From positions 72,789,772-72,853,771 of the forward strand of contig NC_092051.1 in NCBI RefSeq assembly GCF_003086295.3: a stretch of DNA of 64,000 bases. Direction: 5' to 3'. Under the pieces are notes generated by a model that saw only the letters and a list, made by a program, of their open reading frames with translations, did no database searches and had not been told where the DNA came from. Position 1 is the stretch's first letter; every line of letters begins with the position of its first letter. This DNA is from Arachis hypogaea. Taxonomy: Eukaryota; Streptophyta; Magnoliopsida; Fabales; Fabaceae. Shown here piece by piece: positions 5,416 through 52,535 of the stretch. The translations under genes and the position numbers were made by a program.

Positions 5416-5560
5416 ATGGCCACCGAGGAAGGGAAAGGGAAAGCTTCTAACTGGGGAGACAGGTAAGTCAATCTGCACAATCTATAGAGAAAGGCATCAG
5501 TTGGAGCAGTCCGTCCACTTGTACATCTTAGCATGCACCGAGGACGGTGCAATCTTTAAG
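5416..5560 (+). pseudogene. ORF2 remnant of element B2
   Basis: Begins ATGGCCACCGAGGAAGGGAA, matching the start of the ORF2 stub in B (50914) and resembling the lysine-rich N terminus of ORF2 in D. Stops occur within about 20 codons and the main ORF2 domain is absent, so only the two ends of the original gene appear to be joined here. Confidence 0.55.
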
Positions 5561-5572
5561 TGTGGGGAGGTC
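5534..5572 (+). other. Internal hairpin plus polypurine-like motif (B2)
   Basis: Stem TGCACCG / CGGTGCA (7 bp) with loop AGGA, followed by TTTAAGTGTGGGGAGG. The same hairpin plus motif abuts the 3' LTR of B (52498-52535) and lies internally in B (51030) and, with a different stem, in D (29454-29495). Confidence 0.8.
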
Positions 5573-6031
5573 GATACCGATCTCCGTGGGTTAGTTACTT
5601 CTTTTTTCAACTCCAATGTTAATTTGTTAATTGCTGTATTTGCATGTTTGTTTGATTTTATGCATTTAGTTACTACTTGGTTGAAGTAATATTTTCTTTT
5701 TCAAGAAATTTTTATAGTATTTCACTAATTTAAATTGAAAAATTTGTGTTAAACTTGTTTGGAAGTTGTATTTGGAACATGGTTTTTGAGCCAAAGAACA
5801 CACAACCTGTGAGATTTTGAGCTTATTTATATGGTTACATTATTTAACCATAAATTTTTATTCTTGTGTGTTTTCTTCTCTATAATTGCAATCTTTACTT
5901 TGTTCCATTCTATATGTCCATTATTTAGTGTATTTACATGCTTGCATATGATTGAGGCCATTACTTGTTTTTGCTCACTTATCCCAAATAAGCCTACCCT
6001 TTTATGTCACCTTTGTTAGCCACTTTGAGCT
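5573..6031 (+). other. 3' non-coding tail of B2, broken at 6031
   Basis: AT-rich sequence matching the region after the internal hairpin in B (51070-51550) and D (about 29440-28760, minus). It stops abruptly near TTTGAGC at 6031, where LTR E sequence begins. The rest of the B2 tail and its 3' LTR are missing. No gene seen. Confidence 0.65.
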
Positions 6032-6938
6032 AAATTACAGAAACTTAAAGTGCAAGAAATTAAAAGAGCTGAAACTTAATTTGTAAGAAAGGTAAATAAC
6101 TGAAACTTAAAGTGCAAGAAACTTAAATTGCTGAATCTAAATTGCTGGGAAATGTAAATTGCTTGAAGAATAAAAGTGATTTGAGTATTGGGATTCAAAT
6201 TGAACTAGAAAATTGAAGTGTAGTCAACTAAAGAACTATAAGATGAAGAGAAATTGCAGATGAACCAAAACAAAAATGAAAATTGCAGAAGAAGGAAAAT
6301 CAGAAAGAAATAATTGAGATCCAATCTTTAATTCATAAATTCAGAAAACAGAAAAGAAATGGAACTTCAAGATGAAGAACTTCAGAGAATTCTTCAATCA
6401 GAGTTCAAAAACAAAAAGCAGAGAGTAGAAGTTGCAACAGAAAGAAAATAAATACAGAAAGTAAACTCCGATCCGATCTCAAGAATTCTCAAAAGACTAA
6501 AAGAGCAAAAAGAAGTTTCAAAAAAATGAAAAATGAAAGTAAAAATCAAGCTAAAAGGTAAAAAGTAAAAAGTCCTAGCTCAAATCAAATTTAATCCTAT
6601 TTATACACTTTCTACTTTAGTCATTAAGTACTTGGAATGGGCCTTTGGATTTGTGAAAAAATGGATCCAAAAATGGCACTTAGTGGCATGGGTCAGGGTA
6701 CATTTGGTTCCTTCCCAGTGGAGCGTTCAGTTTACTCAATGAACGCTACGTTCATTAGCCATACGTGCCTCGTCACATGCTCAATTTTTGCTCCCTGGCG
6801 TTTACTTAGTGAACGCTAAGTTCACTTGTTGAGCGCTCCCTTTGTTGCGCGCCTTGGTGCGCGATTTGTTGCTCAGCCAGCGCTCATTTGGTGAGCGCTT
6901 CGTTCATTCTTTGAGCGCTACCTAGTGCTCCCTTGGTC
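6032..6938 (-). repeat. 3' LTR fragment of element E
   Basis: Strongly similar to 21073-21800 plus 43233-43410, the two halves of the 5' LTR of E split by element A. Both ends are truncated: the left joins B2 at about 6032 and the right joins pol sequence of E at about 6938 within a shared CCTTGG. It holds the minus-strand TATAAATA near 6596-6603 and, from 6719, repeats of the GAGCGCT and AATGAAC-GCTAC-GTTCATT type. Confidence 0.75.
6719..6935. repeat. Inverted-repeat array, GAACGC/GAGCGCT type
   Basis: Short palindromic units such as AATGAACGCTACGTTCATT (7-bp stem, loop GCTAC) and GTGAAC-GCTAA-GTTCAC alternate with GAGCGCT words. The array starts about 115 bp upstream (minus sense) of the TATA candidate. 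The other copy is at 21762-21799 and 43245-43610. Confidence 0.75.
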
Positions 6939-8159
6939 CAAGGCTATCTTGTGAGCTTTCAACACTTCGATAGCTTTGTTTCTTCTTCTATTTTTAAGGA
7001 GGAATTTATGATCACTGGCAGGGCCTCTGCTTCTCCAAGAAATACATACTTGAGATGAGGGGGAAGAGGCTTTAACTCTTATTTTGACTTCTCTTCTGTC
7101 TTGCCTTCAGAGGAGATTTCTACTACTTCCTCTCTTATTAAATCTTGTTCCACTTCTGTTTCCACTTTTTGTTCCTCCTGGTTGTTGGCCTCAAGTAACC
7201 CTTTCTCTACTTCTTCCACCATTTTCACTCTCGTATGTTCTTCTTTCTCAGGGGAATATTGCATGGCTTTAAAGACATTGATGATCCTCTTTTCATCATG
7301 CACTCTGAGTGTTATTTCTCCTTTCTCTACGTCAATTATAGCCCTTGCTGCGGCTTGAAAGGGCCTCCCCAAGATTATTGAGTTGTGTCCTTCTTCCTCT
7401 ATGTCCAAAATGACAAAGTCAGCAGGAAATATGAATTTTCCTACTTTCACCAACAAATTCTCCACAACTCCATTAGGTATTTTAAGCGATCTGTCAGCCA
7501 TTTGAAGTGACATTCTAGTTGGCCTGAGTTCCTCTATTGCAAGCTGCTTCATTAATGAGAGAGGCATCAAGTTGATGCTGGCTCCTAGATCACAGAGGGC
7601 TTTGTTTAATGTTCTGTTGCCTATAGTGCAAGATAGGATGAAGCTTCCTGGATCTTTGAGCTTTGGTGGAAGACATCTTTGGATAACAACATTGCATTTT
7701 TGGGTCAAGATTACTGTCTCCTTCTCATTCTAGCTCCTTTTCTTATTGATGAGCTCTTTGAGGAATTTTGCATATAGAGGCATTTATTCTAGAGCTTCAG
7801 CAAGTGGAATGTTGATCTCCAGCTTCTTAAAAACTTCTAAAAACTTTGGGAACTGTTGACCCTTTAGCTCCTTTTGCAATCTTTGAGGATATGGCAGAGG
7901 AGGGGTGTAGGTCTTTACTAACTTCCTCTGTTCATGTGGTTGTTCCTCCATGATTTGATTTCCCTTCTTTGGAGCTTGTGGATGTTTCTCTTTCTCCTTG
8001 AGCTTCTCTTGATCTTGCTTGTCTTGTTCTCCTACTTGCTTCTTGCAGGCAATATCATTCTCTACAGGCTTCTTGTTAGCTTCTTTGCCATTCTCCAAGG
8101 TTCTTCCACTCCTTAATTGGATAGCTTTGCATTCTTCCTTGGGGTTGGGAATGGTGTCA
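6939..8159 (-). pseudogene. gag-pol: E gag C-terminus, aspartic protease and pre-RT segment
   Basis: Continues the gag frame interrupted by G. The segment ECKAIQLRSGRT is the conserved gag/protease linker of Athila-type elements. A lysine/glutamate-rich stretch follows, then the protease, 7708-7079, with active-site CDLGASIN (family-typical D-L-G) and IILGRPF. After it LPPHLKYVFLGE is the segment that normally precedes RT. In-frame stops lie at about 7784, 7732 and 7079, and the frame is lost near 6985. The RT domain itself is absent: the sequence runs into LTR fragment at about 6938. Protease would have cleaved the gag-pol polyprotein; this copy is dead. Confidence 0.85.
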
Positions 8160-9879
8160 TGGTGCACGAAATTGGGATGTCCAGGCTCAAACAATCCCTG
8201 GCAACGTGAGCAACTTGGTACGCGCAATCGTGATTACACTTTGATTATGTAAAATTCATGGCTCTTTCTTTCCCTGGCAATGGCGCCAAGAACATGGTGC
8301 CAATACCATGTTTCACAACTTTGATACAACTAACCAGCAAGTGCACTGGGTCGTCCAAGTAATACCTTACGCGAGTAAGGGTCGAATCCCACGGAGATTG
8401 TTGGTATGAAGCAAGCTATGGTCACCTTGCAAATCTCAGTTAGGCAGATATAAATTGATAATGGTGTTTTCGAATTTAATATAATAAAATAGGGATAGAA
8501 ATACTTATGTAATTCATTGGTAGGAATTTCAGATAAGCGAATGGAGATGCTTTCGTTCCTCTGAACCTCTGCTTTCCTGCTATCTTCATCCAATCAGTCT
8601 TACTCCTTTCCATGGCTGGCTTCATGCAAGGGCATCACCGTTGTCAGTGGCTACATCCCCTCCTCTCAGTGAAAAATATGCTCACATGCTCTGTCATAGC
8701 ACGGCTAATCATCTGTCGGTTCTCGATCATGCTGGAATAGGATTCACCCTCCTTTTGCGTCTGTCACTAACGCCCAGCACTCGCGAGTTTGAAGCTCGTC
8801 ACAGTCATTCAATCATTGAATCCTACTCAGAATACCACAGACAAGGTTTAGACTTTCTGGATTCTCTTAAATACCGCCATCATTCTAGCTTACGCCACGA
8901 AGATTCTGGTTAGGAGATCTAAGAGATATTCATTCTAGCTTATTTCATGTAGAACGGAAGTGTTTGTCAGGCACGTGTTCATAGGGGAGAATGGTGATGA
9001 GCGTCACACATAATCATCACCTTCATCACGTTCTTGGGTGCAAATGGATATCTTAGAAGCGAAACAAGATGAATTGAATAGAAAACAGTAGTACTTTGCA
9101 TTAATCCTTGAGGAACAGCATAGCTCCACACCTTAATCTATGGAGTGTAGAAACTCTACTGTTGAAAATACATAAGTGAAAGGTCCAGGCGTGGCTGAAT
9201 GGCCAGCCCTCAAATGTGATCTAAGATAGCATACAACTGATCAAAGATACCTAATACAATAGTAAAAGGTCCTATTTATAATAAACTAGTCATTAGGGTT
9301 TACATGAGTAAGTAATTGATGCATAAATCCACTTCCTGGGCCCACTTGGTGTGTGTTTGGGCTGAGCTTGAGTGTTGCACGTGTAGAGGTCCTTCTTGGA
9401 GTTGAACGCCAGCTTTTGTGCCAGTTTGGGCGTTCAACTCTGGTTTTGGCTCCTTTTCTGGCGTTGGACGCCAGATTTGGGTAGAAAGCTGGCGTTAAAC
9501 GCCAGGTTACATCGTCTATTATTGGCCAAATTATGGACTATTATATATTTCTGGAAAGCCCTGGATGTCTACTTTCCAACGCAATTGGAAGCGCGCCATT
9601 TCGAGTTGTGTAGCTCCAGAAAATCCACTTTGAGTGCAGGGAGGTCAGAATCCAATAGCATCAGCAGTCCTTCTTCAACCTCTGAATCTGATTTTTGCTC
9701 AAGTCCCTCAATTTCAGCCAGAAAATACCTGAAATCACAGAAAAACACACAAATCATAGTAAAGTCCAGAAATGTGAATTTAACATAAAAACTAATGAAA
9801 ATATCCCTAAAAGTAACTAGATCCTACTAAAAACATACTAAAAACAATGTCAAAAAGCGTATAAATTATCCGCTCATCA
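8160..9879 (-). repeat. 3' LTR of element G
   Basis: 1720 bp, ends TGATGAG and GTGCACCA on the minus strand. It contains a U3 box near 9537-9591, palindromes GGCGTT-AACGCC at 9401-9505, and TATAAATA at 9273-9280 (minus). Near its 3' boundary are two PBS-like relics at 8179-8206 and 8271-8288. The 90-codon open frame at 8641-8913 recurs in the other LTR but is antisense and LTR-internal, so I do not call it a gene. Confidence 0.9.
9401..9505. repeat. Palindromic GGCGTT/AACGCC array in LTR G
   Basis: About five copies of CTGGCGTTNAACGCCAG-type words and half-sites. The second LTR has the same array at about 18621-18735. The nearest unit lies about 120 bp from the TATA candidate. Confidence 0.85.
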
Positions 9880-9917
9880 CAACACCAAACTTAAATTGTT
9901 GCTTGTCCCCAAGCAAC
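9880..9917 (-). other. 3' hairpin and TAAGTTTGGTGT motif beside 3' LTR (G)
   Basis: On the minus strand an 8-bp stem GTTGCTTG / CAAGCAAC with loop GGGA (9898-9917) is followed by TAAGTTTGGTGT (9882-9893) and then the LTR. This is where the polypurine tract that primes plus-strand DNA should be, though the motif is T-rich as well as G-rich. Confidence 0.75.
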
Positions 9918-11035
9918 TGAAAATCAAATAGGATAAAAAGAAGAGAATATACTATAAATTCCAAACTATCAATGAAACAGAGCTTCAATCATATGAGCGG
10001 GACTTATAGCTTTTTGCCTCTTGAATAGTTTTGGCATCTCACTTTATCCATTGAAGTTTAGAATGATTGGCATCTATAGGAACTTCAGATTTCGAATAGT
10101 GTTATTGACTCTCCTAGTTTAGTATGATGATTCTTGAACACAGCTTCTTTATGAGTCTTGGTCGTGGCCCTAAGCACTTTGTTTTCCAGTATTACCACCG
10201 GATACATAAATGCCACAGACACATAATTGGGTGAACCTTTTCAGATTGTGACTCAGCTTTGCTAAAGTCCCCAATTAGAGGTGTCCAGGGTTCTTAACCA
10301 CACTCTTTTTTTTTGCTTTGGACCTTGACTTTAACCGCTCAGTCTCAAGTTTTCACTTGACACCTACACGCCACAAGCACATGGTTAGGGACAGCTTGGT
10401 TTAGCCGCTTAGACCAGGATTTTATTCCTTTAGGCCCTCCTATCCACTGATGCTCAAAGCCTTGGGATCCTTTTTATTTGCCCTTGCCTTTTGGTTTTAA
10501 GGGTTATTGGCTTTTTGCTCTTGCCTCTTGGTTTTAAGAGCTTTTGGCTTTTTCTGCTTGCTTTTTCTTTCTATTTTTTTTCTATTTATTTTTTTTTGCC
10601 TAAATTTTTTTTTCTGCAAGCTTTGTTCTTTGCTGCTTTTTCTTGCTTCAAGAATCATTTTTATGATTTTTCAGATTATCAAATAACATGTCTCCTAGTC
10701 ATCATTCTTTCAAGAGCCAACATATTTAACATTCTTAAACAACAACTTCAAAAGACATATGCACTGTTCAAGCATACATTCAGAAAACAAGAAGCATTGT
10801 CACCACATCAATATAATTAAGCTAAGTTCAAGGATAAATTCGAAACTCATGTACTTCTTGTTCTTTTGAATTAAAACATTTTTCATTTAAGAGAGGTGAT
10901 GGATTCATAGGACATTCATATCTTTAAGACATCGTTACTACTACTAATGATCATGTAATGAAGACACAAACATAGATAAGCACATAACATAGAAAACGAA
11001 AAACAGAGAAAGCAAGAACAAGGAATGAATCCACC
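9918..11035 (-). other. 3' non-coding region of G
   Basis: About 1.1 kb between the ORF2 stop and the terminal hairpin. It is recognisably conserved with the same region of A (40601-41645) although neither has a long reading frame. No gene recognised. Confidence 0.65.
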
Positions 11036-12187
11036 TTAGTGATGGTGGCGTTTCCTTCTTGAGGAACCAATGATGTCCTTGAGCTCTTCTATGTCTCTTC
11101 CTTGTCTTTGTTGCTCCTCCCTCATTGCTTTTTGATCTTCTCTTATTTCATGAAGCATGATGGAGTGCTCTTGATATTCCACCCTTAGTTGTCCCATATT
11201 GGAACTCAATTCTCCTAGGGAGGTGTTAATTTTCTCCCAATAGTTTTTTGGAGGAAAGTGCATTTGAGGCATCTCCGGGATCTCATGGTGATGAGCTTCA
11301 TACGCCTCTTGAGCTCCATGAATGGGCTCTCTTGCTTGCTCCATCTTCTTCTTAGTGATGGGCTTGTCCTCTTTAATGAGGATATCTCCCTCTATGTCAA
11401 TCCCAGCCGAATTGCATAGGTGGCAGATGAGGTGAGGAAAGGCTAACCTTGCCATAGTGGAGGACTTGTCAGCCACCTTGTAGAGTTCTTGAGGTATAAT
11501 CTCATGAACTTCCACCTCTTCTCCAATCATGATGCTATGGATCATGATGGCCCGGTCTATAGTAACTTCAGACCGGTTGCTAGTGGGAATGATTGAGCAT
11601 TGAATGAACTCCAACCATCCTCTAGCTACAGGCTTGAGGTCCACTCTTCTTAGTTGAACCGGCTTGCCTTTGGAGTCAATCTTCCATTGAGCTCCTTCTA
11701 CACATATGTCCATAAGGACTTGGTCCAACCTTTGATCAAAGTTGACTCTCCTTGTGTAGGGGCGTGCGTTCTCTTCCATGTTTGGCAAGTTGAACGCCAA
11801 CCTCACATTCTCCGGACTAAAATCTAAGTATTTCCCCCGAACCATTGTAATATAGTTCTTTGGATCCGGGTTCTTACTTTGATCATGGTTCTTGGTGATC
11901 CATGCATTAGCATAGAACTCTTGAACCATTAGGATGCCGACTTGTTGGATGGGATTTGTTAGAACTTCCCAACCTCTTCTTTGAATTTCATGTCAAATCT
12001 CCGGATACTCATTTCTTTTGAGTTTGAAAGGGACCTCAGGGATCACCTTCTTCTTGGCCACAACATCATAGAAGTGGTCTTGATGGGCTTTGGAGATGAA
12101 CCTTTCCATCTCCCATGACTCGGATGTGGAAGCTTTTGTCTTCCCCTTCCCCTTTCTAGAGGATTCTCCGGTCTTAGGTGCCATCAA
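11036..12187 (-). pseudogene. ORF2 of G: Athila-type downstream protein
   Basis: About 383 codons in one frame with a single in-frame stop at about 11991. It occupies the position after pol where Athila elements carry an env-like ORF. Lys/Ser-rich start (ESSRKGKGKTKAS), then the conserved globular block (RRGWE, MVQEFYANAW, FDQRLDQVL, LKPVARGWLEFI, IPTSNRSEVTIDRA) shared with ORF2 of A and more distantly of D. This block is what databases call a putative plant transposon protein domain (from memory). The last ~80 residues are probably coiled coil (EIREDQKAMREEQQRQGRD). I see no signal peptide or membrane segment, so an envelope role is not supported. Function unknown. Confidence 0.8.
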
Positions 12188-12222
12188 TGGTAATGGAAAA
12201 ACAAAAAGCTTATGCTTTTACC

Positions 12223-12257
12223 ACACCAAACTTAGAATTTTGCTCGCCCTCGAGCAA
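12223..12257 (-). other. Pre-ORF2 hairpin and TAAGTTTGGTGT motif (G)
   Basis: Minus strand: 7-bp stem TTGCTCG / CGAGCAA with loop AGGG (12240-12257) followed by TAAGTTTGGTGT (12223-12234), ending 36 nt before the ORF2 ATG. The stem sequence differs from the pre-LTR copy while pairing is kept. Confidence 0.8.
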
Positions 12258-12735
12258 TAAAAGAAAGAATAGATGAAGAAGAAGAAGAAATAGAGGAGAG
12301 GGAGAGTGGTAAGTGTTTTCGGCCAAGAAGGGTGTAGAGGGGTGTGTTGTGTGAATTTGATGAAGAATGGAGGGCTTTATATAGGGAAGGGAGGGGGGGT
12401 TATTGTTCGGCCATGTGGGTGGGTTTGGGTGGGAAATTGGTTTTGAATTTTGAAGGTAGGTGGAGTTTATGAGGTAGGTTTATGGGGAAGAGTGGATGGA
12501 TGTGAGTGGTGAAGAGGTGATGGGGAAGAGAGTTTGAGGTGATTGGTGAAGGATTTTTGGGGAAGAGTGTTTATGGGGTTGTGTGAAAGAGAGTGGTGAG
12601 AAGAAGTGAGTGGAGGTAGGTGGGGATCCTGTGGGGTCCACAGATCCTGAGTGGATCCTGTGGGGTTCACAAATCCTGAGGTGTTCAAGGATTTACATCC
12701 CTGCACCCATTAGGCATGTAAAAATGCCTTTGCAC
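12258..12735 (-). other. Spacer upstream of ORF2 (G)
   Basis: Low-complexity GGTGG/AAGAG-rich sequence with short direct repeats (GATCCTGTGGGG words at 12626-12670). The open frames here follow the repeats and have no recognisable protein. I see no gene. Confidence 0.5.
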
Positions 12736-12955
12736 CCAACTCTGGGCGTTCAGCGCCAGGTTGGTGGCCATTTTGGGCGTTCAACGCCCATTTGTGTGCC
12801 ATTTCTGGCGTTGAACGCCAGAACCATGCCTGTTCTGGCGTTGAACGCCAGAACCATGCCTGTTCTGGCGTTCAGCACCCAGAAGCTGCCCATTTTGGGC
12901 GTTCAGCGCCAGAACCATGCTCTGTTCTGGCACTGCACGCCAGACAGATGCTCCT
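12736..12955. repeat. Palindromic GGCGTT/AACGCC array in G spacer
   Basis: Around nine half or full sites of the same motif found in the G LTR, including tandem units CTGGCGTTGAACGCCAG at 12807-12823 and 12835-12851. It lies between gag-protease and ORF2. Confidence 0.85.
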
Positions 12956-13083
12956 CCAGGGTGTGATTTTTCTTCTACTATTTTTAATTCCGTTTTCAAT
13001 TTTTATATTTATTTTGTGACTCCACATGATCATGAACCTACAAAGACATATAATTAAGAAAAATATAGTTAGATAAATAAAAA

Positions 13084-13099
13084 TTGGGTTGCCTCCCAA
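13084..13099 (-). other. Post-stop hairpin TTGGG-AGGCAA-CCCAA (G)
   Basis: 5-bp stem with loop AGGCAA on the minus strand, 68 nt after the gag-protease stop, preceded by AAGCGCTTG. Same position and loop type as in B, B2 and D, with a different stem. Confidence 0.7.
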
Positions 13100-13166
13100 C
13101 AAGCGCTTCTTTAATGTCAATAGCTTGACAGTGGGCTCTCATGGAGCCTCACAGATGTGCAGAGCT

Positions 13167-15483
13167 TTATTGAAACTCTCCAACACCAAACTTAGAGTTT
13201 GGATATGGGAGTTCAACACCAAACTTAGAGTTTGGTTGTGGCCTCCCAACACCAAACTTAGAGTTTGACTGTGGGGGCTCTGGTTGACTCTGCTTTGAGA
13301 GAAGCTTTTTCTGCTTCCTCTCCATGGTTGCAGAGGGAGATCCTTGAGTTTTAAACACAAGGGAGTCCTCATTCCATTGAAGGACTATTTCATCTCTGTC
13401 AACATCAATCACAGCTCTTGCTGTGGCCAGGAAAGGTCTTCCTAGGATGATGGATTCATCCTCTTCCTTTCCAGTATCCAGTATCCAGGACTATGAAATC
13501 AGTAGGGATGTAAAGGCCTTCAACCTTTACTAAAACGTCCTCTAGTTGTCCATATGCCTGTTTTCTTGAATTGTCTGCCATCTCTAATGAGATTTTAGCA
13601 GCTTGCACCCCATAGATTCCCAGTTTCTCTATTACAGAGAGGGGCATGAGGTTTATTCCTGAACCAAGGTCACACAGAGCCTTAAAGATCATGGTGCCTA
13701 TGGTGCAGGGTATTATGAACTTTCCAGGATCCTGTCTCTTCTGAGGCAATGTCAGTTGATCCAGATCACTTAATTCATTGATGAACAAGGGGGGTTCAAC
13801 TTCCCAATTATCAATGCCAAATAATTTGGCATTCAGCTTCATGATTGCACCAAGAAACTTGGCAGTTTGCTCTTCAGTAACATCCTCATTCTCTTCAGAA
13901 GAGGAATACTCATCAGAGCTCATGAAGGGCATAAGGAGGTTCAATGAAATCTCTATGGTCTCTAGATGAGTCTCAGATTCCTTTGGTTTCTCAGAGGGAA
14001 GCTCCTTATTGGTCACTGGACGTCCCAGGAGGTCTTCCTCCTTGGGATTCACGTCCTCCTCTCCCTCATTGGGTTCGGCCATTTTGCTTATGTCAATGGC
14101 CTTGCACCCTCCTTTTGGATTCTCTTCTGTATTGCTTGGGAGAGTACTGGGAGGGATTTCAGTGATCCTTTTACTTAGCTGGCCCACTTGTGCTTCCAAA
14201 TTTCTAATGGAAGATCTTGTTTCATTCATGAAACTTACAGTGGCCTTGGACAGATTAGAGACTAAGTTTGCTAAATTAGAAGTATTTTGTTTAGAGTTCT
14301 CTATCTGTTGCTGAGTGGATGATGGAAAAGGTTTATTATTGTTAAACCTGTTTCTTCCACCATTATTAAAGCCTTGTTGAGGCTTTTGATCCTTCCATGA
14401 GAAATTTGGATGATTTCTCCATGATGAGTTATAGGTGTTTCCATAAGGTTCACCTAAGTAATTCACTTCTGCTATTGCAGGGTTCTCAGGATCATAAGCT
14501 TCTTCTTCATAAGAAGCCTCTTGAGTACTGTTGGATGCAGCTTGCATTCCATTCAGACTCTGAGAAATCATATTGACTTGCTGAGTCAATATTTTATTCT
14601 GAGCCAATATGGAATTCAGAGTATCAACTTCAAGAACTCCCTTCTTCATAGGCGTCCCATTACTCACAGGATTCCTTTCAGAAGTGTGCATGAACTGGTT
14701 ATTAGCAACCATGTCAATGAGTTCTTGAGCTTCTGCAGGCGTTTTCTTTAGGTGAATGGATCCACCTGCAGAAGTGTCCAGTGACATTTTTGATAGCTCA
14801 GATAAACCATCATAGAATATATCCAGGATGGTCCATTCTGAAAGCATGTCAGAAGGACACTTTTTGGTCAACTGTTTGTATCTTTCCCAAGCTTCATAGA
14901 GGGATTCACCTTCTTTCTGTCTGAAGGTTTGAACATCAGCTCTAAGCTTGCTCAGCTTTTGAGGAGGAAAGTACTTGGCTAAGAAAGCCGTGACCAGCTT
15001 ATCCCAAGAGTTCAGGCTGTCTTTGGGTTGAGAATCCAACCATAATCTAGCTCTGTCTCTTACAGCAAAAGGGAAAAGCATGAGCCTGTAGACTTCAGGA
15101 TCTACTCCATTAGTCTTAACAGTATCACATATCTACAAGAATTCATTTAAGAACTGAAAAGGATCTTCAGATGGAAGTCCATGAAACTTGCAGTTCTGCT
15201 GCATCAGAGAAACTAATTGAGGTTTCAACTCAAAGTTGTTTGCTCGAATGGCAGGAATGGAGATGCTTCTTCCATGTAAATTGGAATTAGGTGCAGTAAA
15301 GTCACCAAGCATCTTCCTTACATTATTATTATTTTCGGCTGCCATCTCCTCTTCCTGTTCGAAAATTTTTGAAAGGTTATCTCTGGATTGTTGTATTTTA
15401 GCTTCTCTTAGTTTCCGTTTCAGAGTCCTTTCAGGTTCTGGATCTGCTTCCACAAGAATGTTCTTATCCTTGCTCCTGCTCAT
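13167..15483 (-). pseudogene. gag-pro: gag-protease of element G
   Basis: Single long frame starting MSRSKDKN at 15483, broken by one in-frame TAG at 15133 and by a 7-bp tandem duplication (AGTATCC) near 13480 that shifts the frame. The gag capsid region is around LMLFPFAVRDRARLWLDSQP, LAKYFPPQKLSKLR and TFRQKEGESLYEAWERYK. An Asn/Gln-rich region and a coiled-coil stretch (LEAQVGQLSKRI) follow. The protease has LCDLGSGINLMP where relatives have DLGASIN (Ala-Ser replaced by Gly-Ser/Gly), then IILGRPF. The C terminus has three NSKFGV repeats. Unlike E and A it ends after protease with no RT or integrase. Gag would build the particle; with two lesions this copy is probably inactive. Confidence 0.85.
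13183..13270 (-). repeat. Triple TAAGTTTGGTGT repeat at the end of gag-protease
   Basis: Three copies of CTCTAAGTTTGGTGTTG (minus strand) spaced 33 bp, at 13183-13194, 13216-13227 and 13249-13260 for the 12-base core. They encode the NSKFGV repeats. The core is the same 12-mer that adjoins both hairpins of this element. Confidence 0.85.
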
Positions 15484-17358: not shown

Positions 17359-17376
17359 TCCCCGGCAACGGCGCCA
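17359..17376 (-). other. Primer-binding site of G (tRNA-Asp)
   Basis: TGGCGCCGTTGCCGGGGA on the minus strand, an exact match to the 3' end of plant tRNA-Asp, six bases from the LTR. Confidence 0.9.
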
Positions 17377-17382
17377 AAAACT

Positions 17383-35471: not shown

Positions 35472-35474
35472 TTT

Positions 35475-38627: not shown

Positions 38628-38667
38628 AGCTCAGTAAAGTCCAGCTAAAGATAATAAAGAAGCGCTT

Positions 38668-38839: not shown

Positions 38840-38995
38840 GTAAAGGGAATTGTGGGTGTTAAACGCCCAAAAGAAGCATTTACTGGGCGTTTAACGCCAG
38901 TAAAGATACCTTTCTGGGCGTTAAATTGTAGCATCCTGGGCGTTTAGAAAAACGCCCAAAATAAGCAACAACTGGACGTTAAACGCCAGAAGTGT
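38840..38995. repeat. Palindromic GGCGTTTAACGCC array in A spacer
   Basis: About seven half or full sites of the LTR-A motif (for example TGGGCGTTTAACGCCAG at 38884-38900) between integrase and ORF2. Confidence 0.85.
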
Positions 38996-39393: not shown

Positions 39394-39429
39394 TTTGCTT
39401 GAGGACAAGCAAACCTCTAAGTTTGGTGT
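39394..39429 (+). other. Pre-ORF2 hairpin and TAAGTTTGGTGT motif (A)
   Basis: 8-bp stem TTTGCTTG / CAAGCAAA, loop AGGA (39394-39413), then TAAGTTTGGTGT at 39418-39429, 37 nt before the ORF2 ATG. Same spacing as in G. Confidence 0.8.
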
Positions 39430-39466
39430 GCTTTTCGTGATCACTGAGCTAAGACTCACTAAGATC

Positions 39467-41645: not shown

Positions 41646-41683
41646 GTTGCTTGAGAACAAGCAACAGTTTAAGTTTGGTGTTG
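41646..41683 (+). other. Terminal hairpin and TAAGTTTGGTGT motif (A)
   Basis: 8-bp stem GTTGCTTG / CAAGCAAC, loop AGAA, then TAAGTTTGGTGT (41670-41681) two bases before the 3' LTR. Confidence 0.8.
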
Positions 41684-43232
41684 TGATGAGCGAATATTTT
41701 ATACGCTTTTTGGGGGTATTTTCATATAATTTTTTGTATGATCTAGCTATTTTTTAGTATATTTTTATTAGTTTTTATGCAAAAATCACATTTTTGGACT
41801 TTACTATGAGTTTGTGTATTTTTCTGTGATTTCAGGTACTTTCAGGCTGAAATTGAGGGACCTGAGCAAAAATCTGATTCAGAGGCTGAAAAAGGACTGT
41901 AGATGCTGTTGGATTCTGACCTACCTGCACTCAAAATGGATTTTCTAGAGCTAAAGAAGACCAATTGGCGCGCTCTCAATTGCGTTGGAATGTAGACATC
42001 CAGGGCTTTCCAGAAATATATAATATTCCATACTTTGCCCAAGTTTTGACGACGCAAATTGGCATTTAACGCCAAGTCTTTACCCTATTCTGGCGTTAAA
42101 CACCAGAACTGGCATAAAAACTGGAGTTAAACGCCAGAAACAGGCAGCAACTCGGCGTTTAACTCTAAGAAAAGTCTCTACACATGGAAGCTTCAATGCT
42201 CAGCCCAAGCACACACCAAGTGGGCCCCAAAAGTGGATTTCTGCACTATCTATCTTAGTTTACTCATTTTCTGAAAACCTAGGTCATTAGCTTATTATAA
42301 AAACTATGTTTAGAGATTTAGTTTGAACCGGATGACATTATTACACTTCATATTGTATTTCTGACGGCATGAGTCTCTAAATCCCATGGTTGGGGGTGAG
42401 GAGCTCTGCTGTGTTTCGATGAATTAATGCAATTACTACTGTTTTTCATTCAATCACGCTCGTTTCTATTCTAAGATATTCACTTGCACTTCACTCTGAT
42501 GAATGTGATGATCCGTGACACTCATCATCATTCTCACCTATGAACGCATGCCTGACAACCACCTCCGTTCTATCTGCACTTGTTTGAGTGTGTATCTCTT
42601 AGCCTCCTGGTTCACGATCAGAGTCTTCGTGGTATAGGCTAGAATTATTGGCGGCCATTCCTGAGATCCAAAAAGTCTAAACCTTGTCTGTGGTATTCCG
42701 AGTAGGATCTGGGAAGGGATGACTATGACGAGCTTCAAACTTGCGAGTGTTGGGCGTAGTGACAGACGCAAAAGAATCAATGGATTATATTCCAACATGA
42801 GTGAGAACCGACAGATGATTAGCCGTGCGGTGACAGTGCATTTGGACCATTTTCACTGAGAGGATGGATGGTAGCCATTGACAATGGTGATCCACCAACA
42901 TATAACTTGCCATGGAAGGAGACCTGCGTGCGTGAAGGAGAAGACAATAGGAAAGCAGAGATTCAGAAGACAGAGCATTTCCAAAACCTCAATCTATTCT
43001 CCATTACTGCATAACAAGTATTATTTATTTTTTGTTAATTACTTTTCATAAACCCAACCATTTTTATTATTAATTTCCTGACTAAGAATTACAAAATAAC
43101 CATAGCTTGCTTCAAGCCAACAATCTCCGTGGGATCGACCCTTACTTACGTAAGGTATTACTTGGGAGACCCAGTGCACTTGTTGGTTAGTGTTACGAGT
43201 TGTGAAAAGTGTGATTTACAATTCGTGCACCA
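41684..43232 (+). repeat. 3' LTR of element A
   Basis: 1549 bp. Palindromes 42058-42163; TATA candidate TATAAAAA at 42296-42303, 133 bp further on and absent from the 5' LTR. Confidence 0.9.
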
Positions 43233-46062: not shown

Positions 46063-47507
46063 TGATAAACCACTATTTTATGGTTTATCTTGTGCTCAAT
46101 TGAGTGGATTTTATCAACTCTTTACCCACTTATTCATACTATTTGAATGGTTTTACAACTCCTTCCTGATTTTGTGCTATGATTGAAAACATGCTTCTTT
46201 GATCTTATATTTGCTTATTATTAATCCTCTCTTATTACCATTAGATGCTTTGATATGTGTGTTAAGTGCTTTTAGAGATTATAGGGCAGGAATGGCTTGG
46301 AGGATGGAAAAGAAGCATGCAAAAGTGGAAGGAGTACAAGAAGTTGAAGAAACAACAAAGCTGTCAGTCTGATCTCTTCGCATTCAAATAGTCATAACTT
46401 GAGCTATAGAGGTCCAAACGACGCTGTTCTAGTTGCATTGGAAAGTTAATGTCTGGGGCTTCGATTTGATATATAATATTCCATAGTTGCCCGACCGCTA
46501 GGCGATGCGACCGCGTGCTCCATGTGGACGCGTCGCAGTGACGAAAATTCAGCATGTTGAATTCGCAACCAGCGAATTCTGGGTTGTTTCTGACCCAGTT
46601 CTCGGCCCAGAAAACACAGATTAGAGGCTGTAAACTGGAGGTATGTATCCATTCATAATCACACTCTCATATTTACAATTTTAAGATTTAGATGTAGTTT
46701 TTAGAGAGAGAGGTTCTCTCCTCTCTCTTAGGATTAGGATTTAGGATTTCTCTTAGTTTTAGGAGCGACTCTCAATCACAGGTTCTTTATTTTTATTTAT
46801 TTTCCCAATTTAATTTATGAACTTTTCCATGTTATGATTTGAATATTTTGTTTAATATAATTTGAGGTATTTCAGACTTATGATTGCTCTCTTTAATTTA
46901 TTAATGCTCTGTGTTTATCCAAGTTATTTTCATTCAAGTAGACTTTCTTCCCTTTTGGCTTTGGTTGAATCATTGGAAACACTTGAGTTATCAAACTCAT
47001 TGTTGATTAAAAATTGGAATTCTTCAAGAAATAATTCGAGTTCCAATAACTCTATCCTTTCCCAAGGAAAGACTAGGACTTGAGGAATAAAAATTAATTC
47101 ATCCACTTAACTTCCCTTCATAGTTAGAGGTCAACAAAGTGGGAGAAAAATCCAATTCTCATTACAATTGATAAGGATAACCAGGATAGGACTTTCTGTT
47201 TTCATACCTTGCCAAGAGTTTATTTTATAGTTATTTATTTATTTTATTCTTCTTATGCAACATACTGCTCCCTAATTTCTAAAACCCCTAATTTACAAAC
47301 TCATAACCAATAATAAGAACATACCTCCCTGCAATTCCTTGAGAAGACGACCCGAGGTTTAAATACTCGGTTATCAATAATAAAAAGGGGTTTGTTACTT
47401 GTGACAACCAAAACATTTGTGTGAAAGGACTTTTGAAGGTTTTGAAACTATACTTGCAACGAGGATTTATCCGCAAATTTCTAGACCATGCAAAAGTTCT
47501 CTCATCA
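46063..47507 (+). repeat. 5' LTR of element B
   Basis: 1445 bp, TGATAAACC to CTCATCA. U3 box 46432-46482; CGCG-type words 46497-46540. The TATAAAG seen in the 3' LTR at 53102 reads GTAAACT here (about 46630), so the 5' promoter may be weakened. Confidence 0.92.
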
Positions 47508-47510
47508 AAA

Positions 47511-47528
47511 TGGCGCCGTTGCCGGGGA
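47511..47528 (+). other. Primer-binding site of B (tRNA-Asp)
   Basis: Exact TGGCGCCGTTGCCGGGGA, three bases after the LTR. Confidence 0.92.
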
Positions 47529-47878
47529 ATTGCAAACGTGTGCCTTATTATTGGTTATTGTAAATATTTTATTTTTGCTTGTTTATTTGTTTTTATTTTT
47601 GTTTTTATTTTTGTTTTTTCTTAAGTTAAGAGGTTATTGGTTTTTATTTTAAAATTTTATTTTATCTTATCTTATTTCAAAAAATCAAATTTCAAAATTC
47701 AAATTTAAAAATTTTCAAAATTCAAATTTAAAAATTTTCAAATTTCAAATTTCAAAAATTCAAAATTCAAAAATTTAAAATTCAAAATTTCAAAATTTAA
47801 TTTTCAAATTCAAACTTTAAATAACCTTTTAATTTAAATTTGTTTTTATTTTTTTGTTTTTAATTTTTATTTACTATC
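47529..47878 (+). other. Leader of B
   Basis: AT-rich; 47690-47815 is a degenerate repeat of AAATTCAAATTT-type words. No gene. Confidence 0.7.
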
Positions 47879-49593
47879 ATGAGTTCTCACCCCCATCGCT
47901 GTGAGTCTGGTTACAATTATGTTGCAGGAAGAAGAAATTACAATGAGAATAGGCATCAAGGTTGGAACAATCAAAGATGGGAGGAGCCACAAGGATTTGA
48001 TCAACCCTCTTGGCAACAACCACCTCCAATGGATTATCAACAACCACCAACATATGCCTATAAACCCTTTCCTCAACACAACTTTGAACCACCATACTCA
48101 CAAGCCACCTACAACCATTCACCTCCATATGACCCTAACCCGTATCCACCATACCAAACACCTTATGAGCCAAATGAACCCTCCTATCCACCCCAAACCT
48201 CCATGGAGAAAGCACTTGCCGATCTAAACTCTACTATACAAGCTCTCTTCGCCCAAATCGGACCACCAAACACCTTCAACAATCAACCCTCAAGCTCTAG
48301 TGCACTTCCTTTTCAACCACAGAATGATCTCTCCATCCCATCACCACCATCCATGGAAGAGCACCCACATCCATCAATCCAAGAGCAACATGATCCCAAT
48401 GATGCTATTGACATGAAACAAGAGAGAAGGGATCATCTTCGCGAATCTATACTTCATAAGGAGCTAGAGGAGGCCCTAAGGGTGAAGGTAGTAAAAACCC
48501 TTAAAGTCGAAGGAGTGGTTGAAGAATTAGTGAAGGAAGAATCAAGGGATCATCTCAAAGAAGCAGCGGATCGATTTCATGCAACTCTATATCAACTAAA
48601 TCAAGCGATAAGTCTATTAGGTTCCCGATGCTCGGACACTCAAAATGCTCCCATGGCTTCATGTGGGCAATCTAATGAAGAACGTAGCATGAAGGAGATA
48701 TTAGAAACTCCAATGGACAGTACGTTGCATGACTGGAACAAGTGGAGGAAGCTGTAATTATCGAAGAAGAAGAAGTGGTTGCAGACTTAGGAGATGCTGA
48801 ACCTCCATGGGAAAGTCAAGACATAGAACCTCCTTCCAAGACGGTTGCATTTGATGTTGAGGAGGGTGTACAACCTCCAAGGCATATGATAGTTGAAGAC
48901 TTGGAAGAGGTTGATCAAGAGATGGAGATTAAAGAGAAAGAAGCACAACCTCCCATGCCCTTGGAAAGCAGTAAAGAGAGGATTGAATTAGAAGAAAGCT
49001 ACCAAGAGGAAGAGGTTGAAATTGAAGAAGCTTGCAAAGAGGTGGTAATTATCAGAGAAGAGCACAGGGGAGTGGAGCTTGCAATTTCATTAAAAATACC
49101 TCCCCCTAAGTTGCCATCATCCTTCACAACATTCAAGTGGGTAAAATTCATATCCCTTAGCTTTCTAATTCCACTTGAATATGGGCTACTGGAGACGGAT
49201 GGTCAACTTAGAGCTCTTTGTGGCATTAAGAGTAAGAGGAAGAGGGTCATTGGTAAGAACTGTCCTGCAAAGTTCATTATGGTTGGAAGCTTTAAGTTTA
49301 AATGCAAAGGTTGGTATAAAGCTCAACTGAATGGGTCTAGGAAGCTGTTTGGATGTCTCAGTGAGAATTCTGACTGTTCACCACCCAAGTGGAAAAATGA
49401 TGATCAACAAGACGATGGGTGCAAAGGCGTCTGGGACCCCGGAATTCAATCTAGAAATCAACACTCTTGGGGCCTTGTCACTTGCTTTAACTTACTCGAA
49501 GGCTTTCTGCGCCTAGTTTGGGATCCCGGAGGCCATTGGAATCACAAACATTGGTGGAGATTCTTGGATGAGTTCAAGCACAAGCCATCATAA
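47879..49593 (+). pseudogene. ORF1 of element B
   Basis: Starts MSSHPHRCESGYNY. 5' frame to 48757, then the homology continues in another frame to 49593, so there is one frameshift near 48720-48740. N-terminal ~120 residues are Pro/Tyr/Gln/Asn-rich (NQRWEEPQGFDQPSWQQPPP), then a Ser/Pro segment, a helical acidic centre (HLRESILHKELEEALRVK) and a basic Cys/Trp-rich C-terminal domain (RALCGIKSKRK, KFIMVGSFKFKCKGW, AQLNGSRKLFG) ending KHKPS. No known enzyme motif. Homologues are ORF1 of B2 and D. It fills the gag position; role unknown. Confidence 0.75.
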
Positions 49594-49642
49594 CAGGGAG
49601 CTCACCAAATGTCCAACTTAAGGACTTTAACTAAAAGTGCTA

Positions 49643-49660
49643 GGTGGGAGACAACCCACC
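49643..49660 (+). other. Post-stop hairpin GGTGGG-AGACAA-CCCACC (B)
   Basis: Perfect 6-bp stem, 49 nt after the ORF1 stop, preceded by AAAAGTGCTA. Confidence 0.75.
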
Positions 49661-49800
49661 ATGGTATAATCGTTCCTTTTTCATTTTTTATTTAGTTTAT
49701 TTGTTTTCGAGTTTTATTTTATTTTATTATATTGAACCTGGAGCTTTGCATCACATTCATATTAACACTGCATTCTGCATTTTTTCAGATAAAAAAAAGC

Positions 49801-50362
49801 ACGCACGCGACGCGGCAGCGTCGCTGACGCGGCAGCGTCGCTGACTAGTCCGCGTCACCAGTGCAATGAGAAGAAAAGAAGACGAACAGAAAGTCACGCG
49901 ATAGCGTGGCTGGAGGCACGCTTTTAGCATAATTTGACCCCACGCGACCGCGTCGCTGACACGTCCGCGTCAGGTGGGAACATTGGCCTCCCATGCGACC
50001 GCGTCACCCACGCGGCCGCGTGACCTGAAATCGACGTCAAAAGGGTGTATGGCCGAAAGTTGTGCTGGAGTAGGGCTGGACTCGTGCTAGAAGCCCAAGT
50101 CCTCCCACGCGAACGCGTCACCCACGCGTCTGCGTCATATTGGAAATAAGGCCATCCACGCGATCGCGTCAACCACGCGATCGCGTCACCCCAAATTTTG
50201 GCAATAAGCAAACTGAACAGAGAGTTGTGCGAATGCGAGGCTGCACTTGCGCCAATCGCACAAATCAGGCCGCGTGATCGCGTGACCCACGCGTCTGCGT
50301 CACCTGAACTTATTGCGCACCACGCGACCGCATCACTCACGCGTCCGCGTCGCTAGCGTCGC
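49801..50362. repeat. CGCG short-repeat array in B spacer
   Basis: CACGCGACCGCGTC-type words repeated more than 15 times. Same motif class as the CGCG words in this element's LTR. Confidence 0.85.
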
Positions 50363-50913
50363 ACAACCTATCCAAATTAGTGCCAATTTTTTTATCTTCT
50401 CTTCTCTAATTCTAATTTTCTATCTTTTCTTATTCTTTTCGCTTTCTTTCTTACTTTATTTCTTTCACTTCTCATTCCTTTTCACCTTCATTCTATTTTA
50501 TTTAATTTAATTGCATATTTTCATTCATTGCATATTTTTATTTTTCTAAATTTATTATTTTACCATTGGTGTTCAAATGTTCTTATTCAACTGTTACATC
50601 TTTTCTGGTATTTTCTTGGTGCTTAATGACTTGTTTAATTCTGATTGAGTAATATTATTTAAATCAATGCCAATTTTTTATATCTGTATTACTTTTACAT
50701 TGACATGAATTTATATTATCTCTCCTTCCCCACTCTCTTTTCCATTGTTGTACATTTTGTACCACTGGCATGCCATGGCTTCTATTGTTTTCTCAGTTGC
50801 ATGTTGTAGCTACCATGTAATTGAGACCCTTATTATCTGGCATTAACACCCATATTTTATTTATTTTCTATCTTTATTTTTGGGTTAATTTTTCTTTTCC
50901 TTCTTCTTTCAGG
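50363..50913 (+). other. Pyrimidine-rich spacer with splice-acceptor-like end (B)
   Basis: Polypyrimidine runs at 50395-50500 and 50888-50912. The last reads TTCTTCTTTCAG immediately before G-ATG of the ORF2 stub, a good plant 3' splice site. No gene. Confidence 0.5.
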
Positions 50914-51090
50914 ATGGCCACCCGGAAGGGAACCGGAAGACGTTTGCATGGGGAGACAGACAAGTCCATCTGCAAAATCTTGAAGAAAAGCATCAGTTGG
51001 AGCAACCCGTCCACCTGCACATCTCAGCATGCACCGAGGACGGTGCAATCTTTAAGTGTGGGGAGGTCGATACCGATCTCCATAGGTTAG
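50914..51090 (+). pseudogene. ORF2 stub of element B
   Basis: 58 codons from MATRKGTGRRLHGETDK. The start is like the basic N terminus of other ORF2 proteins, but the globular block is missing and the frame runs straight through the internal hairpin. I read it as a deletion remnant. A short expressed peptide cannot be excluded. Confidence 0.5.
51030..51069 (+). other. Internal hairpin and GTGTGGGGAGG motif (B)
   Basis: 7-bp stem TGCACCG / CGGTGCA, loop AGGA, then TTTAAGTGTGGGGAGGTCG. Confidence 0.8.
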
Positions 51091-51785
51091 TTATTTCCTG
51101 ACTCAACACCAAAACTTTTATTTTATTTGTTTGTTCATTGTTGCATTTTCATGTTTGATTGCATATTTGTTTAATTTTGTGCATATTTTACCACTTGGTT
51201 GAAGTAATATTTTCTTTTTCAAGAAACCTTTTAGAGCATTTCACTAATTTGAATAAAATTTAATGTTACACTTGTTTGAAGAAATATTATACTGGAACAT
51301 GGTTTAGAGCTCGAACACACAAAACCTGTGAGATTTTTGAACCTATTTGAATTGGTTGCATTTTATCAACCAATATTCTGTTATAGTGTGTATTTTTCTC
51401 TCTAAAATTGTGATCTTTGTCTTGCTTAATTCTATATTTCCATTATTTGATGTATGCATACACTTACATGATTGAGGCCTTTGTTTCACTGAGCTTACAT
51501 ACCCATATGGCCTTACCTTTCATTATCCTTTGCAAACCAATTTGAGCCTATTTTACCCCTTTTATTTTTTATTTTAGCTCATCACTAACTCTAAGCGAAA
51601 AACAATAATGTCCTTAATTTGAATCCTTGGTTATGATTTAAGTGTAGGAAAAGTGGGTTTCGAAACATTTGGTTTGAGAATTAGGTGTTATATATCTTTA
51701 TGAAAATGTGAAAGAAATGTTTAAGACATGTTCATGCATTCAATAATTTAATCATATGCATTGATAAAAACAAAAGAAAAAGAAA

Positions 51786-51845
<60 letters not shown>

Positions 51846-52497
51846 AGAGAGAAAAAGAAAGAAAAAGAGAAAATAAGTAAAAGGGGACAAAATGCCCCAA
51901 AGTAAATGGTGAAAGCAATGCATATGTACTGTACTTGAAATTAGAATGCATGAATATGTGAAAAACATGGTTAATGGATAGTTAGATGTGGTATTATGAT
52001 TATATGGATTGTCTAAAGTTAGGTGAAAAGTTTGAGTTAATTAAGAATTCAGATTTTAGTCCACTTGGCCAAATACAATCCTACCTTGACCCTAACCCCA
52101 TTACAACCCTTAAAAGACCTCTTGATATGTGTATCTGTGCATTAAATTTATGTTGATTGGTAGAAGAAGAGCAAGCCTTAGAAAGAAAGGTTAGTAGAGA
52201 ATTGAGAGAATCGAACCTAAAACACTTGAGTGATTAGAGTGTATACACTACCAGTGAGAGTTCGATGCTTAATTCCTTGTTCCCTGCTTTCATGAGCTAT
52301 TTTCTTCTTGCAAGTTTACTTGTACTTTACTTTGTATGATTTGAATTAGTGGAATCTGATTTATATTTGTCTTGGAGAACTTATTTTACTTTTAACCAAG
52401 TAGGTAGAAATATTCTGCATATAGTTGCATTCATACAGATAGGTTGCATTTCATACATTCTACCATTCTTCTTCACCTTTATAGTTTCTCCTGAGCT
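51070..52497 (+). other. 3' tail of B with AT microsatellite
   Basis: 1.4 kb non-coding. At 51794-51842 a run of about 24 TA units follows a poly-A stretch. No gene. Confidence 0.7.
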
Positions 52498-52535
52498 TAG
52501 CATGAGGACATGCTATTGTTTAAGTGTGGGGAGGT
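52498..52535 (+). other. Terminal hairpin and polypurine tract of B
   Basis: 7-bp stem TAGCATG / CATGCTA, loop AGGA (52498-52515), then TTTAAGTGTGGGGAGGT touching the 3' LTR. The purine-rich end is the expected plus-strand primer. Confidence 0.85.

What the first reader, a model, noticed from the sequence alone, without database searches (positions are those of the whole stretch)
5534..52535. Covarying hairpin with a four-base purine-rich loop, coupled to a polypurine-like motif, twice per element
Stems: TAGCATG/CATGCTA, TGCACCG/CGGTGCA, AGCATCG/CGATGCT, AGCATG/TATGCT, GTTGCTTG/CAAGCAAC, TTTGCTTG/CAAGCAAA, TTGCTCG/CGAGCAA. Loop AGGA, AGAA, AGGG or GGGA. 4-8 bases later comes TAAGTTTGGTGT (A, G) or TAAGTGTGGGGAGG (B, B2, D). 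Stem bases change with pairing kept, strong evidence for an RNA or single-strand DNA structure. One copy always touches the 3' LTR; the other lies beside ORF2. It may define the plus-strand primer, a second primer site, or a translation/processing signal for ORF2.
Basis: partly seen in the sequence, partly recalled or inferred. Interest (0 to 1): 0.88.

Follow-up and report, generated by a model that had tools for sequence, protein, structure and literature searches.

The report
Hairpin beside retrotransposon plus-strand primer site
Jumping genes in this plant genome usually carry, at two places each, a small RNA-type hairpin a fixed distance from the sequence that should start second-strand DNA copying; the hairpin's letters change while its pairing is kept, so it probably helps set where that copying starts.

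Summary
All nine hairpin-plus-motif sites are present. A covariance model built from 29 copies elsewhere in the genome finds exactly these nine in the window (E ≤ 4e-7), then only motif copies without the hairpin. With broken copies kept, 433 of 462 stem cells pair, against 23–43% when one arm is slid. Genome-wide, 23,954 of 30,404 Athila-type motifs carry GAGGAC 6–12 nt upstream and 9 carry it at 13–30 nt; 47,216 of 56,316 FIDEL-like 3' junctions carry GAGGAC or GGGGAC at 6–12 nt.

Best reading: a plus-strand-origin module (pyrimidine tract, purine-loop hairpin, short spacer, PPT-like motif) at the 3' LTR and again 1–2.3 kb upstream. Hairpin foot to LTR is 16–21 nt, mode 18, close to the polymerase–RNase H distance of HIV-1 reverse transcriptase. 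I infer that the hairpin positions the primer cut. An ORF2 signal is not supported. The extra PPT of Athila4/Calypso is in print; my searches found no description of the hairpin. Other plants could not be tested.

The parts
5532..5567 (+). internal module of element fragment B: stem TGCACCG/CGGTGCA, loop AGGA, motif TTTAAGTGTGGGGAGG
   Evidence: model hit 52 bits
51028..51063 (+). internal module of element D (stem TGCACCG/CGGTGCA)
52496..52535 (+). terminal module of element D: stem TAGCATG/CATGCTA, PPT AAGTGTGGGGAGGT directly before the 3' LTR (LTR from 52536)
   Evidence: TSD GGCAC read
29460..29497 (-). internal module of element C: stem AGCATCG/CGATGCT, motif TAAAGTGTGGGGAGG
27800..27839 (-). 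terminal module of element C: stem AGCATG/TATGCT (closing pair G-T), PPT AAGTGTAGGGAGATT before the 3' LTR
   Evidence: TSD TGCCT read
39393..39428 (+). internal module of element A: stem TTTGCTTG/CAAGCAAA
41645..41683 (+). terminal module of element A: stem GTTGCTTG/CAAGCAAC, loop AGAA, tract AAGTTTGGTGTTG before the 3' LTR
12224..12259 (-). internal module of element G: stem TTGCTCG/CGAGCAA, loop AGGG
9880..9918 (-). terminal module of element G: stem GTTGCTTG/CAAGCAAC, loop GGGA, tract AAGTTTGGTGTTG before the 3' LTR
   Evidence: TSD TGACA read
23568..23594 (+). motif TAAGTTTGGTGT without the purine-loop hairpin, 5' leader of A, 328 nt after the PBS
16618..16817 (-). two motif copies without the hairpin in the 5' leader of G, 560 and 749 nt after the PBS
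13184..13260 (-). three motif copies in 33-nt tandem in G, in frame (peptide NSKFGV), after sequence that I read as protease-like; without the purine-loop hairpin
   Evidence: Pfam gave no match for this ORF piece
46063..53979 (+). element D, LTRs 46063-47507 and 52536-53979; no pol domain found in the two pieces scanned
26278..36977 (-). element C, nested in A; its PF20167 ORF (29635-30708) lies upstream of its internal hairpin; no pol domain found in the pieces scanned
21796..43232 (+). element A, interrupted by C: protease, RT, RNase H, integrase pieces, then internal hairpin, PF20167 ORF (39542-40369), terminal hairpin, 3' LTR
   Evidence: no matching TSD found
8160..19103 (-). element G: gag ORF, internal hairpin, PF20167 ORF (11039-11992), terminal hairpin; no RT, RNase H or integrase match

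Best explanation
Each site is a plus-strand-origin module of Ty3/gypsy-type LTR retrotransposons. In order it has a pyrimidine-rich stretch, a 6-9 bp hairpin whose stem is free to change but whose loop (mostly AGGA or GGGA) is fixed, a short spacer, and the PPT or its equivalent. One copy sits at the 3' LTR and makes the primer that defines the LTR's left end. The second, 1-2.3 kb upstream (after pol where pol is present), is a linker PPT with the same apparatus. Shown: the structure, its covariation, the narrow spacing, the two copies, and the match of motif type between the two copies of an element. Inferred: the hairpin acts in the genomic RNA; reverse transcriptase, having just copied the PPT, pauses at its foot, which puts the RNase H site about 18 bp behind, at the PPT/U3 junction; and the internal copy is used as an extra plus-strand start.
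For: Covariation (the 29 rows were chosen for stems of at least 7 bp). Recovery of exactly the nine window sites by a model built without window sequences, though from copies of the same families, one identical to the B and D internal sites. Spacing: GAGGAC at 6-12 nt 23,954, at 13-30 nt 9. Loop to LTR 30-31 nt in 59 of 63 terminal sites and stem foot to LTR 18 nt in 31 of 52, range 16-21 (L139 left out). RNase H cuts about 18 bp from the polymerase site in HIV-1 RT (PMC5766924, passages). Motif type agrees between internal and terminal copies in 4 of 4 window elements while their stems differ, by one pair in A and more in C, D and G. Pyrimidine fraction upstream of the stem: 0.74 terminal, 0.72 other anchored, 0.55 at unanchored motif copies. 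The internal site follows pol pieces in A, L114, L116, L123, L127. Extra linker PPT in Athila4/Calypso in print (PMC2829016).
Against: No plus-strand start was observed; all tests are on DNA of one genome. One control does not discriminate: pairs with a change on both sides, 6 observed, 5.4 in shuffles. In RNA folding the nine 61-nt sites reach z -1.07 to -4.39; at A_int both the lowest-energy and the centroid fold lack the hairpin, and at C_3LTR the lowest-energy fold lacks it. The FIDEL-like tract is barely purine-rich. Why the same motif also stands in the leader and in a tandem repeat without a hairpin is unexplained.
Confidence: 0.6

Rival explanations
1. The hairpin is a Gag/nucleocapsid binding element (packaging or chaperone site) that happens to sit at the PPT. 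The G-rich tetraloop would be the bound part, as in retroviral packaging hairpins (recalled).
For: Loop letters are conserved while stem letters are free (AGGA 89, GGGA 19 of 121 anchored sites). The motif recurs in the 5' leader and in a tandem repeat.
Against: The leader and tandem copies lack the covarying purine-loop hairpin. Spacing to the primer motif is narrow, which packaging would not require.
Confidence: 0.17
2. The hairpin, acting in the single-stranded minus DNA, stops the plus strand arriving from upstream, so that a gap or flap is left at each origin, like a central termination sequence.
For: It lies immediately upstream of the primer motif at both sites. Covariation alone does not tell RNA from DNA.
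Against: At the terminal site no upstream strand needs stopping before the last step (inference). Some repeated families keep G-T pairs in the + strand, which would be A-C mismatches in the minus strand; this is weak, because over the 66 unique arm pairs G-T cells (16) and A-C cells (14) at pairs 1-7 are about equal.
Confidence: 0.1
3. Signal for translation, splicing or processing of ORF2.
For: In A and G the internal site lies shortly before the PF20167 ORF, as in 13 of 20 sampled stretches, after a pyrimidine-rich tract.
Against: In C the PF20167 ORF is upstream of the internal site. Six of seven sampled stretches without PF20167 match keep an internal hairpin match. The same module stands at the 3' LTR, where the LTR and no ORF2 follows.
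Confidence: 0.06
4. Inherited sequence without function: the copies are merely related.
For: All copies descend from a few families, and many single copies are decayed (21 of 66 unique arm pairs lack six intact pairs).
Against: Stems differ at six of seven positions on both sides with pairing kept and between the two sites of one element, while loop and motif stay nearly the same.
Confidence: 0.03

Closest known systems
Extra linker PPT of Athila4 and Calypso (Wright and Voytas 2002, seen only as cited in PMC2829016)
   Same: One additional PPT between pol and the 3' LTR
   Different: The passage I saw mentions no hairpin; the original paper is not held
Sirevirus multiple PPTs with an inverted repeat at the terminal PPT (PMC2829016, passages and section 7)
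   Same: Several PPTs near the 3' LTR; a stem-loop proposed to help primer formation
   Different: Ty1/copia elements; octamer AGGGGGAG; their repeat runs from just upstream of the terminal PPT into the LTR and is absent at the upstream PPTs, whereas here a separate hairpin stands upstream of the tract at both sites
Central PPT of foamy virus and HIV-1, second PPT of Ty1 (PMC6669543 passages, PMC5294762 listing, PMC2829016 passages)
   Same: A second plus-strand start inside the element
   Different: In the passages seen these lie in coding sequence; here the copy lies after pol. No covarying hairpin in the passages seen
Ty3 PPT (PMC11381356, passages)
   Same: Ty3/gypsy element whose PPT lies in a structured stretch of the RNA
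   Different: There the PPT itself is in a base-paired region, predicted with lower probability; here the hairpin is a separate unit upstream of the tract
FIDEL of peanut (Nielen 2010, recalled and in a reference list; named in PMC3496627, passages)
   Different: Its paper was not looked up here, so its PPT annotation was not seen

Membership tests
Ty3/gypsy LTR retrotransposon (Metaviridae) | domain order protease, RT, RNase H, integrase | tested here: met
   element A, Pfam pieces in that order; no pol domain was found in the pieces of C, D or G scanned
Ty3/gypsy LTR retrotransposon (Metaviridae) | LTRs beginning TG and ending CA, 5-bp target duplication, tRNA primer site | tested here: met
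   C, D and G: TGCCT, GGCAC, TGACA; TGGCGCCGTTGCCGGGGA after the 5' LTR in C, D, G; A has the PBS but no duplication was found
Athila lineage | RT in the Athila clade | not tested
   no RT tree was made; 'Athila-type' and 'FIDEL-like' are working labels by LTR and motif
Athila lineage | extra ORF after pol | tested here: inconclusive
   PF20167 follows pol pieces in A; C and G have PF20167 but no pol domain found; not seen in D at E 1e-5
Athila4/Calypso extra linker PPT | second PPT copy between pol and 3' LTR | tested here: met
   second copy in 4 of 4 window elements and 18 of 19 sampled stretches; its place after pol is seen in A, L114, L116, L123, L127
functional central PPT | plus-strand DNA starts there | not testable with these tools
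   needs extrachromosomal DNA
Sirevirus PPT system | octamer AGGGGGAG and inverted repeat from the terminal PPT into the LTR | tested here: not met
   tracts are GTGTGGGGAGG, GTGTAGGGAGA or GTTTGGTGTTG; the hairpin ends before the tract
polypurine tract (FIDEL-like group) | run of purines abutting the 3' LTR | tested here: not met
   AAGTTTGGTGTTG, 7 of 13 purines, abuts the LTR in A and G
Rfam family | match at gathering score | tested here: not met
   the one Rfam match in the window is elsewhere, at 14842-14949

The most novel reading that the evidence does not exclude
In the FIDEL-like group the plus-strand primer is chosen by structure and distance rather than by a purine tract: a hairpin acts as a ruler that stalls reverse transcriptase so that its RNase H cuts about 18 nt away, at the LTR edge. 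A second ruler-and-tract module is kept inside the element as an extra origin.
Probability: 0.3. Interest if true: 0.85.

Novelty: new variant of a known kind. Interest (0 to 1): 0.62.

Why it matters
How a reverse transcriptase picks out one short tract as plus-strand primer has been worked out mainly for HIV-1 and Ty3, where tract sequence dominates. A conserved, covarying hairpin at a narrow distance, in tens of thousands of copies and partly beside a tract that is barely purine-rich, offers a different, directly testable solution, and a handle on the unexplained second PPT of plant env-class elements. The 36-nt signature also marks LTR edges for annotation.

Tried and rejected
Outer helix: folding suggested that the tract pairs with the pyrimidine stretch upstream of the hairpin. 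Shuffling only that stretch gave mean z 0.06 (terminal) and 0.34 (internal) for the Athila type, -1.36 and -0.69 for the FIDEL-like type. It is not supported in the Athila type apart from C_int (z -2.41), and only a weak tendency in the other, so I do not claim it.

Relatives elsewhere: pattern scans of viral contigs (4 stretches and 0) and genome contigs (97 stretches). Of the 101 matches tested, 2 had stems of 5 or more pairs; I judged them chance by the stem alone. An RT query found no relative in viral contigs; the PBS pattern gave 4 contigs that I did not examine. No plant outside this genome could be searched.

A first version of the site script used a regular expression that missed the TTTGGT motif; replace it. 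In one search, 60 of 181 distinct motif sites had no purine-tetraloop anchor and are not in the pairing counts; many are leader and tandem copies, some are decayed hairpins. Nine anchored rows at the tandem repeats (eight with loop GAGG, stems of at most 3 pairs) were dropped before (112 of 121 kept). L139 looked like an exception to the spacing; L190, with nearly the same stem, has different sequence there, so I read L139 as an LTR inserted at that point and left it out. 'Terminal' means letters like an LTR start after the motif.

How the sampled sites were chosen: L102-L129 by an exact hairpin pattern; L130-L149 the first 20 listed motif places, without regard to the hairpin; L150-L169 places lacking the exact hairpin pattern; L170-L188 mostly places lacking GAGGAC; L190-L209 mostly unusual 3' arms. 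The search of L110-L129 is not held out: model rows came from L112, L113, L116, L118, L121 and from L102, which overlaps L129.

I did not make an RT tree, use the protein database or predict protein structures.

Literature: searches listed no paper whose title, abstract start or inspected passages describe a hairpin at the PPT of Athila-type elements; (PPT with hairpin or stem-loop and Athila or Ty3-gypsy) found 0 papers. Most subscription papers are not held. Also seen without bearing: PMC11963269 (outline, passages), PMC1142308, PMC6317226, PMC5838962, PMC5904367 (passages).
Full report
What is there. The window lies in a 2.56-Gb genome, G000:C16:72789772-72853771; the size fits cultivated peanut (recalled). 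It holds LTR retrotransposons of Ty3/gypsy type: D (+, 46063-53979), C (-, 26278-36977) nested in A (+, 21796-43232), G (-, 8160-19103) and an internal fragment B (2460-6030). C, D and G have 5-bp target duplications and a PBS reading TGGCGCCGTTGCCGGGGA, which fits tRNA-Asp (recalled). Element A gives protease, RT, RNase H and integrase pieces in that order. In the pieces of C, D and G that I scanned no pol domain was found beyond a weak protease match in G, so these may be non-autonomous.

The sites. All nine hairpins exist as described. Each has a purine tetraloop closed by G-C (G-T at C_3LTR), a stem of 6 to 8 pairs, a gap of 4 to 6 nt and the motif: TAAGTGTGGGGAGG or close variants in B, C, D, and TAAGTTTGGTGT in A and G. 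The terminal copy's tract ends at the LTR: AAGTGTGGGGAGGT|TGATAAACC in D and AAGTTTGGTGTTG|TGATGAG in G. In each of the four elements with a 3' LTR there is one terminal and one internal copy, 1468 (D), 1658 (C), 2252 (A) and 2341 (G) nt apart.

More than chance. I built a covariance model from 29 copies outside the window. In the window it finds exactly the nine sites with E between 1.5e-13 and 4e-7; the next match is at 7.1e-4, and this and the six weaker ones listed are motif copies without the purine-loop hairpin, one of them with a mismatch. The model rows are from the same families, one identical to the B and D internal sites. On those 29 rows all 202 cells pair, six of seven pairs change on both sides, and the covariation score is 0.953 against 0.262 in shuffles and at most 0.172 slid; the count of pairs changed on both sides does not itself exceed shuffles (5.4). 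These rows had been chosen for stems of at least 7 pairs, so the fairer figure is: 112 sites, 66 unique arm pairs, broken ones included, 433 of 462 cells paired (93.7%), slid 23 to 43%, and 417 Watson-Crick cells against a shuffle maximum of 295. The 112 still require a purine tetraloop at the expected place, and part of them (terminal sites in L102-L129) had been found by an exact hairpin pattern. The set chosen by motif alone, L130-L149, gives 19 distinct sites of which 18 keep at least six pairs. Shuffles do not correct for relatedness; the changes between families (TGCACCG, TAGCATG, TAGCACGG, GAGCATCG, GTTGCTTG, TTTGCTCG, CTTGCTTG stems) are the real evidence.

Genome-wide spacing. The 17-mer TTTAAGTGTGGGGAGGT occurs 30,404 times (3 for the reversed control); 23,954 (78.8%) have GAGGAC 6 to 12 nt upstream and 9 at 13 to 30 nt. 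The FIDEL-like junction TTTAAGTTTGGTGTTGTGATG occurs 56,316 times; 10,644 have GAGGAC and 36,572 GGGGAC at 6 to 12 nt, together 83.8%; the wider spacing was not tested for this type. Counts are lower bounds by the tool's own statement.

Two per element. Twenty stretches of 10 kb were taken around exact hairpins of the FIDEL-like kind. The model finds an internal partner in 18 of the 19 that start from a terminal site; L110 has none and L126 is itself an internal site. In L114, L116 and L129 the partner was visible before I chose them, which leaves 15 of 16. Several partners are decayed (L111, L118, L122, L125; the L124 match is weak at 31.5 bits). PF20167 lies downstream of the internal site in A, G and 13 of 20 sampled stretches, upstream in C, and has no match in L110, L114, L116, L122, L123, L125 and L129, six of which keep an internal hairpin match. 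The internal module therefore does not follow ORF2. Where pol pieces were found (A, L114, L116, L123, L127) the internal site lies after them.

Geometry. In 63 terminal sites (L139 left out) the first loop base is 30 or 31 nt from the LTR in 59, with 29 in three and 32 in one. The hairpin foot is 16 to 21 nt from the LTR in 52 sites with at least six pairs, 18 in 31 of them. The anchoring step allowed 15 to 19 nt between loop and AAG, so these ranges are partly bounded by method. RNase H cuts about 18 bp behind the polymerase site in HIV-1 RT (PMC5766924, outline with abstract and passages). RT moving toward the RNA 5' end copies the LTR edge, then the tract, and then meets the hairpin foot; a pause there would put RNase H at the LTR edge. 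This is inference.

The tract. A review says that PPTs have no common consensus and that a single pyrimidine occurs in two retroviral primers (PMC3185511, passages). The FIDEL-like tract has six pyrimidines in thirteen. If it is the primer, something other than purine content must mark it; the hairpin is the obvious candidate.

Motif copies without the hairpin. In G and in L117, L118, L120, L121 and L128 the motif AAGTTTGGTGT also stands twice in the leader; where a PBS could be read too (all but L118), the copies lie 487 to 749 nt after it. G and most related stretches have two or three more copies in 33-nt tandem about 1 kb before the internal site; in G they are in frame. None of these shows the covarying purine-loop hairpin; the anchored matches at the tandem have stems of at most 3 pairs. 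Their role is open; a binding site for Gag or extra weak plus-strand starts are possible.

Known and new. An extra linker PPT in Athila4 and Calypso is stated in PMC2829016, and Sireviruses have several PPTs and an inverted repeat at the terminal one. In Ty3 the PPT itself lies in a base-paired region (PMC11381356, passages). The hairpin upstream of both tracts, its covariation and its spacing I met in none of the papers reached (listings, plus passages of those named here). The original Athila4/Calypso paper is not held. I therefore rate it a new variant of a known kind.

Limits. One genome only; scans of the viral and prokaryote collections gave no plant relative, and no other plant collection was at hand. 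The lineage labels 'Athila-type' and 'FIDEL-like' are not backed by a tree. RNA folding of single sites is modest, and at A_int and C_3LTR the lowest-energy fold lacks the hairpin. An outer helix was tested and is not supported.

Noticed in passing
window 16618-16817 (-), 13184-13260 (-), 23584-23594 (+): The 12-mer TAAGTTTGGTGT recurs in the leader and in an in-frame tandem, without the purine-loop hairpin, at similar landmarks in sampled relatives.
   Followed up: partly
window 14842-14949 (+): Rfam match to plant snoR71 (RF00097, 43.5 bits) antisense to the gag ORF of element G.
   Followed up: no
L139 110: An A-type LTR start lies directly after an Athila-type motif; L190, with nearly the same stem, lacks it, so it looks like an insertion at the module.
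   Followed up: partly
L165: What looks like an LTR end is joined to the 3' arm of a hairpin, as if another element had inserted in the loop.
   Followed up: no
window 44647-45604 (-): A C-like LTR without tract or hairpin upstream of its start, perhaps a solo or 5' LTR.
   Followed up: no
window 55188-62841: Two copies of a segment with two blocks, 95-97% alike, 3.8-4.3 kb apart.
   Followed up: no
window 21069-21799, 43233-43412 and 6027-6938: The sequence flanking element A is repeated at 6027-6938, where it is uninterrupted, but no matching target duplication is seen around A.
   Followed up: partly
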